Shown: positions 48,355-53,264 of the stretch, one piece after another
How the letters are laid out: each line of letters begins with the position of its first letter
Numbering within the stretch: position 1 is the first letter of the stretch
DNA from: Leptodactylus fallax
Lineage: Eukaryota > Chordata > Amphibia > Anura > Leptodactylidae
DNA: 64,000 bases
Direction of reading: 5' to 3'
Assembly: GCA_947044405.1 (NCBI GenBank)
Contig: CAMRHE010000167.1
Location: 2,649,001 to 2,713,000, forward strand
Program-made: the position numbers and the translations under genes
The notes under the pieces: generated by a model
Told to the model about the DNA's origin: nothing
Databases searched by the model: none
Seen by the model: only the letters and a program-made list of their open reading frames with translations

Positions 48355-48357
<3 letters not shown>

Positions 48358-48872
48358 GACAGCTTGGGGAATTACACTCAAAATGGCGGCTTGTCCTGGT
48401 CCGGACAGCGGTGGTTCGTGGTACTGGGCGCCGGAAAGATAGCTTTCAGACGGTCCAAGTGTAAAATAAAATGTGGCTTTATTCAGCTTAACTGCAACAT
48501 AACAAAAACAACAAACACCTAGGCCACAGTTAGGGCACTAACTGACTCCTTGAGTCCCTAACTAGCCTCTGGGGGGCAATAAGAGCTTGACTTAGTCTCT
48601 GTAAGTCCTCTCTGGATCCAGCCCTCTTGGACAGAGCCTCTCTCTCTGTCCTCGCTGGTCCTGACTATTGCTCAGCTCCAGCAACAGTCCCCTGTAGACC
48701 CGAGCCCTCTGGCACAGACCGTCTATCTGTCCAGGTGGGTCCACCATCTCGTGCTCCAAGCAGGTTTCTCCAGCCATCTAGAGATACACGCCCCCACCCA
48801 AAGGCGTGGCTGAGAGCCTTTTCTGGCCTGGCCTGGGTCTCTCAACAGCGCCCTCTGGCTCACATACTTACA
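48355..48872 (-). repeat. Long terminal repeat (3' LTR in minus orientation)
   Basis: 518 bp. Plus-strand ends are TGTGACAGCTTGGGG and CACATACTTACA. The minus-strand AATAAA lies at 48478-48483 (GCTGAATAAAGCC). All of the differences from the other LTR fall in the half farther from the TGTGACAGC end. Confidence 0.93.
48478..48483 (-). promoter_or_regulatory. Polyadenylation signal AATAAA in LTR
   Basis: AATAAA on the minus strand within the LTR, in the right place and orientation to end transcripts that read the ORFs. The same signal sits at 52867-52872 in the other LTR. Inference from position only. Confidence 0.6.
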
Positions 48873-49335
48873 TACCCTCCCCCCTCAGCTTACTACCCAT
48901 GGGGTGAGCTACAACGGGACGAGACCTCCTATGATGAAGTCCCTCTTCAACCAAGTATGCCTGTCCAGTGTCTCTCCAGAAGTCCCCATCTGGCGGTCTC
49001 TTCTTCCAGATTCCGGTTACTCGACACTTCCGGTTTCTCATCACTTTAACTGCTACGCCAAGATCCTGGCCATTCTGTGCAAAGGCAAGTTTTTCTTTAT
49101 CACCTCCACAATTCGCCACACAGGGAATCATATCATTTTCATCACATTTTCCATCATAGTCTTCAGCCATCCCATTGCATGACTTTGATCCCTTTAGTGA
49201 ATAGCCGTAAGAATCTTCTTCTTCTCCTCCTATCACGAATCCACAGGAGTTCAGATACCAGCTAGCACGTACTTCATGTACATCAATGTCTTTAGAGTAT
49301 AAATATTTCACGGGTACCTTTTCTGTAACCTTCAT
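48868..49335 (-). CDS. ORF with partial hnRNP U-type SPRY domain
   Basis: 155 codons from ATG 49335 to a stop at the start of the LTR. The first 90 or so residues (starting MKVTEKVPVKYLYSKDIDVH, then SYGYSLKGSKSCNG, DENDMIPCVANC and FAQNGQDLGVAVKV) match the SPRY domain of hnRNP U/SAF-A family proteins, nuclear RNA- and chromatin-binding proteins in the host. The match also extends a few codons upstream of the ATG in the same frame (GKVCFE). After AVKV the similarity ends and the tail runs over the polypurine tract. The zone begins 26 bp after the stop of the long ORF, in another frame. The domain is partial, so it may not fold. Translation is unproven. Confidence 0.75.
   Translation of the reverse strand: MKVTEKVPVKYLYSKDIDVHEVRASWYLNSCGFVIGGEEEDSYGYSLKGSKSCNGMAEDYDGKCDENDMIPCVANCGGDKEKLAFAQNGQDLGVAVKVMRNRKCRVTGIWKKRPPDGDFWRDTGQAYLVEEGLHHRRSRPVVAHPMGSKLRGEGM
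48875..48886 (-). promoter_or_regulatory. Polypurine tract of LTR element
   Basis: GAGGGGGGAGGG on the minus strand, two bases before the LTR end, is the expected primer for plus-strand synthesis in an LTR element. Confidence 0.8.
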
Positions 49336-52258: not shown

Positions 52259-52743
52259 GGTTTACTAACAAGATTACACAATATTCCACAGCAACCTTGG
52301 GGTTCAACCGGCAGCAACTTCTTGCTATCTTCTGCAGTCACCTGTATTCACACAGTTAACTTATGTGGCACTACAACAACCAGCATTTTCTTCTGTCTTC
52401 CACAGAAAACACCAACATGGCACCATAGCCTTTCACATAGACTGTTTATGTGGCACTACAACAACCAGCTTCTACACACATTGCTTATTTTCTTGCCATC
52501 AGCAAGCACTTTATAGACTTCTGTGCCACAGTATACACAAAGTCCATTCCCTGGATTCCTCTTCCAGAGTTTTACTTTCACCTTGCTATGTTGCAATTCA
52601 CTCACCCCCTCCTGGGTTTCTTCAGTTGAAACAGATTTCTTCCAGCTGTAGGCCACAATGCACACTTTGCAGTACTGCAATCACCAAACACTTGTCTTCC
52701 AGGACTTGCGTGGATCTCTTTATGCGCGCTATTCTCCACCATA
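52259..52743 (-). other. Leader of the LTR element with duplicated 24-mer
   Basis: Between the primer-binding site and the long ORF. The plus-strand 24-mer beginning TTATGTGGCACTACAACAAC occurs at 52361-52384 and 52446-52469, 85 bp apart. A minus-strand frame at 52456-52680 has two CxxC-like pairs (CKVC, CVYC) but no ATG, and I do not recognise it. It could be a remnant of a third captured sequence. Confidence 0.5.
52724..52741 (-). promoter_or_regulatory. Primer-binding site of LTR element
   Basis: TGGTGGAGAATAGCGCGC on the minus strand starts two bases inside the LTR end and begins TGG, complementary to the CCA tail of a tRNA. I cannot say which tRNA. Confidence 0.65.
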
Positions 52744-53264
52744 TGTGACAGCTTGGGGAATTACACTCAAAATGGCGGCTTGTCCTGGTCCGGACAGCGG
52801 TGGTTCGTGGTACTGGGCGCCGGAAAGATAGCTTTCAGACGGTCCAAGTGTAAAATAAAATGTGGCTTTATTCAGCTTAACTGCAACATAACAAAAACAA
52901 CAAACACCTAGGCCACAGTTAGGGCACTAACTGACTCCTTGAGTCCCTAACTAGCCTCTGGGGGGCAATAAGAGCTTGACTTAGTCTCTGTAAGTCCTCT
53001 CTGGATCCAGCCCTCTTGGACAGAGCCTCTCTCTCTCTGTCCTCGCTGGTCCTGACTATTGCTCAGCTCCAGCAACAGTCCCCTGTAGACCCGAGCACTT
53101 CTGGCACAGACCGTCTATCTGTCCAGGTGGGCCCACCATCTCTTGCTCCAAGCAGGTTTCTCCAGCCTTCTGGAGATATGCGCCCCCACCCAAAGGCGTG
53201 GCTGAGAGCCTTTTCTCGCCTGGCCTGGGTCTCTCAACAGCGCCCTCTGGCTCACATACTTACA
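52744..53264 (-). repeat. Long terminal repeat (5' LTR in minus orientation)
   Basis: 521 bp, nearly identical to 48355-48872. It would hold the promoter for the element. I see no clear TATA box. The minus-strand AATAAA is at 52867-52872. Confidence 0.93.

What the first reader, a model, noticed from the sequence alone, without database searches (positions are those of the whole stretch)
48355..53264. LTR retroelement whose only long gene is a captured myosin II rod
The unit has every structural mark of an LTR retrotransposon on the minus strand (TG...CA LTRs of about 520 bp, TGG primer-binding site, 12-base polypurine tract, AATAAA in the LTR, likely ATAT target duplication) but no gag-pol. 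In its place is an intact 965-codon intronless ORF whose residues about 262-520 match the coiled-coil rod of non-muscle class II myosin. Vertebrate LTR elements that replaced all viral-type genes with a cellular cytoskeletal gene are not something I know to be described. A coiled-coil rod could in principle substitute for a structural gag, but that is speculation.
Basis: partly seen in the sequence, partly recalled or inferred. Interest (0 to 1): 0.92.

Follow-up and report, generated by a model that had tools for sequence, protein, structure and literature searches.

The report
Retroelement built from captured host genes
A frog genome holds a large family of jumping elements that replaced the usual virus-like genes with one long gene assembled, piece by piece, from messages of at least three of the frog's own genes (myosin, a clathrin adaptor and an RNA-binding protein), and the myosin piece still seems to be kept in coiled-coil shape.

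Summary
Window 48355-53264 (minus strand) is an LTR element (LTRs 521/518 nt, 98.5% identical) without gag-pol, with an intact 965-codon ORF. It holds an N-terminus without known homologue, a MYH9 rod (residues 262-478), older MYH9-like coil, a HIP1-type coil and an unexplained linker, followed in another frame by an hnRNP U SPRY piece. Of 24 further copies fetched by LTR similarity, 23 carry the rod and 24 the HIP1 and hnRNP U pieces; in 17 SPRY is in frame with what precedes it, and 2 have the whole fusion open. Insertions have 4-bp target duplications. The hnRNP U piece joins exons that introns split in the host gene: spliced mRNA was captured. Sister families lack rod, or rod and HIP1, and most show uninterrupted sites: cargo was added stepwise. 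Stops are about as many as expected since insertion, indels favour multiples of three, and amino-acid changes avoid heptad core positions. Closest known: maize Bs1. No autonomous partner was found; the protein's role is inferred.

The parts
52744..53264 (-). 5' LTR, 521 nt, TGTAAG...GTCACA, with AATAAA
   Evidence: 98.5% identical to the 3' LTR; 40 scored places in the genome at 95-100%
52724..52741 (-). primer-binding site TGGTGGAGAAT...
   Evidence: two copies (L013, L015) keep TGGTGGAGAATGCGGGCAT, the complement of a tRNA-like 3' end with a perfect T-arm that is seen in L042; the name tRNA-Ala is recalled and no tRNA gene was confirmed
52259..52743 (-). 5' leader (packaging role is a guess), shared also by families with other LTRs
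   Evidence: leader plus N-terminal region 83-86% identical in L035-L039
49361..52258 (-). intact chimeric ORF, 965 codons
51476..52258 (-). ORF residues 1-261: N-terminal region and coiled coil, shared by the related families seen; no homologue found for its first part
50825..51475 (-). ORF residues 262-478: captured MYH9 rod piece (MYH9 residues from about 1281 to 1515)
   Evidence: 75% identical to frog MYH9
50612..50824 (-). ORF residues 479-549: older coil, upstream half of a split piece that resembles MYH9 around residues 1010-1132
50315..50611 (-). ORF residues 550-648: HIP1/HIP1R-type coil inserted in the older MYH9-like piece
   Evidence: HIP1_clath_bdg below cut-off in this copy, above it in L025, L027 and L037
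50201..50314 (-). ORF residues 649-686: downstream half of the older MYH9-like piece
49364..50200 (-). ORF residues 687-965: linker of unknown origin
   Evidence: no Pfam match and no PDB match
49042..49356 (-). captured hnRNP U SPRY piece (residues 281-384), out of frame with the ORF in this copy, in frame with preceding sequence in 17 of 24 others
48873..48886 (-). polypurine tract
   Evidence: the same tract, give or take one G, in the 21 LTR-pair copies
48355..48872 (-). 3' LTR, 518 nt

Best explanation
This is one copy of a large, recently active family of non-autonomous LTR retroelements. Shown: thousands of loose candidate places and dozens of scored ones, 4-bp target duplications, near-identical LTR pairs, one long chimeric ORF in place of gag-pol, an hnRNP U piece taken from spliced host mRNA, and stepwise growth (an hnRNP U carrier first, then a HIP1-type piece, then the MYH9 rod). 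Inferred: during reverse transcription in a particle supplied by another element, the polymerase switched from the element's RNA to co-packaged host mRNA and back at short stretches of similarity; the full-length RNA is translated into a fusion protein (N-terminus, long coiled coil, SPRY); reverse transcriptase and integrase come in trans. The coiled coil appears to be maintained as a protein (its heptad core resists change), so the product probably helps its own RNA, most simply as an oligomeric scaffold that binds the element's RNA or the helper's proteins.
For: LTR element and mobility. Same cargo in other copies: rod 23 of 24, HIP1 24 of 24, hnRNP U 24 of 24 loci chosen by LTR, not by ORF. 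SPRY in frame with at least 100 open codons before it in 17 of 24; rod and SPRY in one open frame in 3 (L018, L025, L027); N-terminal start, rod and SPRY in one open frame in 2 (L025, 1270 codons; L027, 1293). Host sources: MYH9 (of 120 listed hits 113 bear a myosin-9 name and 7 no telling name), hnRNP U, HIP1/HIP1R. Spliced origin: introns of 222 and 350 bp in the host hnRNP U gene are absent and the exons join in 8 of 8 element copies compared. Stepwise order: uninterrupted rod site in 5 of 6 sister loci searched and uninterrupted HIP1 site in 3 of 4 (the miss in both is L038, which matched neither pattern); both sites filled in the window's family; that family is one side of a branch, 98/96 support. 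Reading frame kept: 19 stops in 20 copies against 19.8 expected since insertion and about 130 if neutral since the family ancestor; 26 of 69 ORF indels are multiples of three against 12 of 90 in LTR and leader, p 3.6e-4. Protein-level signal: 23 amino-acid states at 68 predicted heptad a/d positions against 127 at 167 others in 24 copies, ratio 0.44, neutral 0.90 (0.63-1.23), 0 of 3000 simulations as low; a and d are each lower than the five other positions.
Against: Overall dN/dS within the family (0.69 pooled) is what the LTR mutation spectrum gives without selection (median 0.73, range 0.52-1.04), and third-codon-position excess between families is weak (0.34-0.45), so constraint is not general. 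The stop count leaves out five copies (L011, L014, L021, L029, L030) that lack an LTR pair or enough alignable codons; L011 has 3 stops in its hnRNP U piece alone, and two of the 20 (window, L027) were picked for open frames. No autonomous partner was found; the one candidate pair looked at was not an element. No transcript or protein evidence could be had. In the window copy SPRY is out of frame, and only 2 of 24 sampled copies have the whole frame open.
Confidence: 0.82

Rival explanations
1. Passenger with an open frame: the element needs a long translated ORF only so that its RNA is not destroyed by nonsense-mediated decay, whatever the protein. Host coding sequence is simply a convenient supply of open frame.
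For: Stops are excluded while overall dN/dS is neutral-like. In Rous sarcoma virus, premature stops in gag lower unspliced RNA by a Upf1-dependent decay (PMC2925335, passages).
Against: Amino-acid changes avoid heptad core positions, which an open-frame-only rule does not predict. The captured pieces that could be named are parts that assemble or bind (two coils, one SPRY), though three is a small number.
Confidence: 0.25
2. An ordinary processed gene copy that happened to be caught between LTRs of a dead element (an isolated LTR-mediated retrocopy), without spread as a unit.
For: LTR-mediated retrocopies are known in animals (PMC5408686, passages).
Against: The same cargo recurs in 23-24 of 24 LTR-sampled copies at different places, with own target duplications where readable.
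Confidence: 0.02
3. A host gene family (domesticated element) with a job for the frog, spread by an element but kept by host selection.
For: Long open frames; the sister copy L035 has an intact 773-codon frame whose hnRNP U piece is 94-95% identical to that of another frog.
Against: The copies dated by LTR pairs are young and gather stops at about the neutral rate after insertion; no single conserved copy was seen, but none was looked for in other frogs.
Confidence: 0.07

Closest known systems
Bs1 retroelement of maize
   Same: LTR element that captured pieces of three different host genes, joined in one hybrid ORF (passages of PMC13317346, and PMC5408686)
   Different: Here: a vertebrate, other genes, many copies (40 of 40 scored LTR places at 95% or more; 4806 loose candidates), related families that show the order of capture, an ORF of up to about 1290 codons, and a protein-level constraint on the captured coil. 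That Bs1 is low-copy is recalled; [quoted passage not shown]
LTR-mediated retrocopies of animals (Tan et al. 2016)
   Same: mRNA pieces inside LTR elements, by template switching at short similarities (as told in PMC5408686, passages; the original is not held)
   Different: As recalled, those are retrocopies of single genes; here the product became the sole gene of a proliferating family and gained further genes
Acutely transforming retroviruses (recalled)
   Same: gag-pol replaced wholly or partly by host mRNA; a helper is needed
   Different: Germline element family, no known oncogene, three or more sources in one frame
LARD/TRIM non-autonomous LTR elements (recalled)
   Same: LTRs, PBS and PPT without gag-pol
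   Different: Those have no conserved long ORF; this one has

Membership tests
LTR retrotransposon | Paired LTRs TG...CA with PBS and PPT | tested here: met
   (21 pairs; PBS as in the window or with small changes, one-G variation in the PPT)
LTR retrotransposon | Short target-site duplication | tested here: met
   15 of 21 clean 4 bp, 1 of 21 5 bp, 5 of 21 unreadable in (AT)n
Autonomous LTR retrotransposon or ERV | gag and pol (RT, integrase, protease) | tested here: not met
   No such Pfam domain in the window ORF or in the frames of L025, L027, L035, L036, L037
Non-autonomous LTR element with a partner | Autonomous element sharing LTR ends | tested here: inconclusive
   Not found; one candidate rejected; L042 shows what looks like another element's PBS for the same tRNA, not examined
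Bs1-like host-gene-transducing LTR element | Pieces of several host genes fused in one ORF | tested here: met
   MYH9, HIP1-type, hnRNP U; rod and SPRY in one open frame in L018, L025, L027
Bs1-like host-gene-transducing LTR element | Captured pieces lack introns of the source gene | tested here: met
   hnRNP U only; the MYH9 and HIP1 host genes were not reached
Bs1 itself | Same genes or sequence as maize Bs1 | not tested
   Different named genes; no sequence comparison made
Host single-copy gene | One locus with introns | tested here: not met
   Multicopy intronless ORF

The most novel reading that the evidence does not exclude
The fusion protein is a home-made substitute for a structural Gag or an RNP scaffold: host coiled coils (MYH9, HIP1) give oligomerisation, and the N-terminus and hnRNP U SPRY give binding to the element's RNA or to a helper particle, so a vertebrate LTR lineage has rebuilt a structural gene from cytoskeletal and RNA-protein parts and keeps adding modules.
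Probability: 0.25. Interest if true: 0.95.

Novelty: new variant of a known kind. Interest (0 to 1): 0.87.

Why it matters
It gives a vertebrate case of serial host-gene capture with intermediates still present, so the order and junctions of exon shuffling by an LTR element can be read directly. It also poses a testable question: can a retroelement keep and use a host coiled coil as its only protein? Such families would also confuse annotation, since many myosin-9- or hnRNP U-like open frames in this genome are element genes.

Tried and rejected
Segmental duplication: rejected by dispersed copies with own duplications. Any-coiled-coil similarity: rejected, MYH9 is preferred. Single captured gene: rejected. 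General purifying selection by dN/dS within the family: not supported once the LTR mutation spectrum is used as the null. dN/dS between families looked lower (N-terminal region 0.21-0.66), but codon-position counts gave only weak support; element against host hnRNP U gave 0.10 (L035) to 0.56 (L027), the window copy 0.38, partly the host's own constraint. Autonomous partner: the 9.3-kb spaced LTR pair on contig C247 showed no element sequence in the 4 kb read between them. N-terminal fold: single-sequence model too poor to use, mean pLDDT 55. N-terminal homologues: no credible PDB match; Pfam only DUF4537 at E 0.009, below cut-off; the protein search listed only 120 of 2583 hits, so weaker N-terminal relatives may have been hidden. 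tRNA gene for the primer: the one of five places that was fetched is not a tRNA gene by ARAGORN (bacterial settings) and looks like another element's PBS. The MYH9 host gene search and a second tRNA pattern search did not complete. Literature searches listed no paper that, from titles and abstract starts, describes such a vertebrate element; they cover open-licence PMC papers only.

Full report
What is in the window. On the minus strand, 48355-53264 is a complete LTR element: 521- and 518-nt LTRs with 8 substitutions in 518 aligned bases, a TGG primer-binding site, a polypurine tract, and one intact 965-codon ORF at 49361-52258. No retroviral or retrotransposon domain is found in the ORF.

What the ORF is. 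Pfam finds a myosin tail (E 5.4e-69), and the closest solved chain is myosin-9 (E 8.9e-69). A search that admits full-length myosins (with the L027 copy, residues 1-340) listed 120 of 2583 hits; 113 bear a myosin-9 name and 7 no telling name, and frogs fill the top places. In the window the rod piece is residues 262-478, 75% identical to frog MYH9 1281-1520. Around it lie an N-terminal region with no outside match found, older MYH9-like coil pieces, a HIP1-type coil and a linker of unknown origin. HIP1_clath_bdg is under the cut-off in the window copy but above it in L025, L027 and L037, and a HIP1R and a HIP1 chain are matched by L037, weakly (E 1.5e-4 and 9.9e-4). Just downstream, in another frame, is a piece of the hnRNP U SPRY domain: 120 of 122 hits listed, mostly named hnRNP U, the best 74% identical in Leptodactylus fuscus.

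A family, not an accident. The window lies in a 2.5-Gb assembly. The LTR gave 4806 loose candidates, of which the 40 best were scored, at 95-100%. These 40 are the window's two LTRs, five further pairs, 19 taken as 3' LTRs and 9 not followed. The 24 loci fetched were chosen by LTR only: the MYH9 rod is present in 23 of 24 (not L011), the HIP1 piece in 24 and the hnRNP U piece in 24. In 17 of 24 the hnRNP U piece has at least 100 open codons before it in its own frame; in 3 (L018, L025, L027) rod and SPRY share one open frame, and in 2 (L025, L027; 1270 and 1293 codons) the N-terminal start does too. The window copy lacks that fusion. Over 21 LTR pairs the identity is 98.3-99.6%; 15 show clean 4-bp duplications, one a 5-bp match, and 5 lie in (AT)n. 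A protein search of the genome gave 6235 loose candidates, 47 scored; there the listed frame lengths read through stops, so they are not used as counts of intact genes.

Where the cargo came from. Searching the genome with hnRNP U returned 10660 loose candidates, 58 scored; most matches run without a break across residues that the host gene splits. The host gene is on contig C200. Its SPRY exons are parted by introns of 222 and 350 bp, yet in 8 of 8 element copies compared the exons join directly; L039 is 98.6, 97.1 and 93.1% identical to the three exon stretches, L035 96-97%, the window copy 88-89% for the two longer ones it keeps. L036 lacks part of the middle exon. Spliced mRNA was therefore the source of this piece. 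The same was not tested for MYH9 and HIP1.

How the cargo grew. Seven loci from the hnRNP U search (L033-L039; L033 lies within L039, so six places) carry the same N-terminal region, five of them with the leader too (83-86% identical), under LTRs that are at best 69-85% alike in parts. L034, L038 and L039 hold hnRNP U residues from about 180 to 610; L035 holds 181-384 in an intact 773-codon frame; L036 and L037 add the HIP1 piece. None of the six has the rod. The rod site is uninterrupted in 5 of 6 (L034-L037, L039) and filled at the same place in the window's family; the HIP1 site is uninterrupted in 3 of 4 searched (L034, L035, L039), and filled in L036, L037 and the window's family. L038 gave no match to either pattern. 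The junctions fall on short similar stretches. Since the uninterrupted HIP1 site is contiguous MYH9-like sequence, the interrupted state is derived. A tree of 640 columns from 26 copies puts the window's LTR family (22 rows, L011 included) on one side of a branch (98/96), L036 and L037 on one (97/92) and L035 with L039 on one (95/93); the tree alone gives no root.

Is the protein used? Three results speak for it. In 20 copies with both LTRs there are 19 in-frame stops; 19.8 are expected if stops were tolerated only after each insertion, and about 130 if tolerated since the family ancestor, a figure that counts shared branches more than once. Five of the 25 copies (L011, L014, L021, L029, L030) were left out for want of an LTR pair or of alignable codons; L011 is visibly decayed. 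Two of the 20 (window and L027) were picked for open frames. Of indels against L027 in 15 copies, 26 of 69 in the ORF are multiples of three against 12 of 90 in LTR and leader. In the rod, amino-acid states are rare at predicted heptad a and d positions (23 at 68 positions) and common elsewhere (127 at 167), ratio 0.44 against a neutral 0.90 (0.63-1.23), 0 of 3000 as low; a and d are each lower than the other five. Against it: the total nonsynonymous share is neutral (0.75 against 0.73), and so is dN/dS in the family. The simplest reading is a protein that must stay an uninterrupted coiled coil but whose surface is free to change.

Mechanism. Shown: mobility as an LTR element, mRNA source of one piece, order of capture, open frame, core protection. 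Inferred: template switching in particles of a helper (the route described in PMC5408686, passages), trans supply of RT and integrase, translation, and a scaffold role. The chief rival is that only an open frame is needed, to escape RNA decay (PMC2925335, passages); the heptad result argues against it as the whole story. The confidence of 0.82 covers the element, its capture history and selection for an open, coiled-coil-coding frame; the scaffold role alone I put at about 0.25.

Comparison. Maize Bs1 is alike in outline: three host genes, hybrid ORF (PMC13317346, passages). This family differs in host, in genes, in scale, in its surviving intermediates and in the constraint on the captured coil. 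No description of it was met in the searches made, judged from listings. A paper on anuran elements (PMC12822217, passages) does not use the word captured.

Limits. The copies fetched are the nearest by LTR, so old or divergent ones are missing. The heptad register is predicted from sequence.

Noticed in passing
L042 (contig C339, 1406405-1406487): A 31-nt stretch ending in CCA is the complement of a long primer-binding site for the same tRNA, so another LTR element with the same primer probably lies there; it could be the autonomous relative.
   Followed up: no
window 48643-48872 and 53035-53264: The 8 LTR substitutions of the window copy lie within the first 170 nt of the LTRs and the gaps within the first 230; none of the other 20 pairs has all its differences there. 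Recombination or conversion is possible.
   Followed up: partly
proteins P0038-P0069: Marmoset and tamarin hold many myosin-tail-only proteins named myosin-9 or myosin-11 like or uncharacterized, many on one contig: perhaps a separate amplification of myosin rod pieces in primates.
   Followed up: no
window 4269-5048, 13115-13750, 21985-23019, 26532-27269, 29164-29880: Tc1/mariner-type transposase frames; Pfam support for the four that were scanned, 13115-13750 by resemblance only.
   Followed up: partly
window 38641-40152: hAT-type transposase frame (DUF659 just under cut-off, Dimer_Tnp_hAT above it).
   Followed up: partly
window 56337-58707: Non-LTR retrotransposon in two overlapping frames, endonuclease and reverse transcriptase.
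   Followed up: partly
L010: Frames that look by eye like a Tc1-type transposase lie inside this copy of the element.
   Followed up: no
(AT)n insertion sites: 5 of 21 LTR-pair copies, the window's included, sit in (AT)n repeats, which hints at a target preference; no background rate was computed.
   Followed up: no
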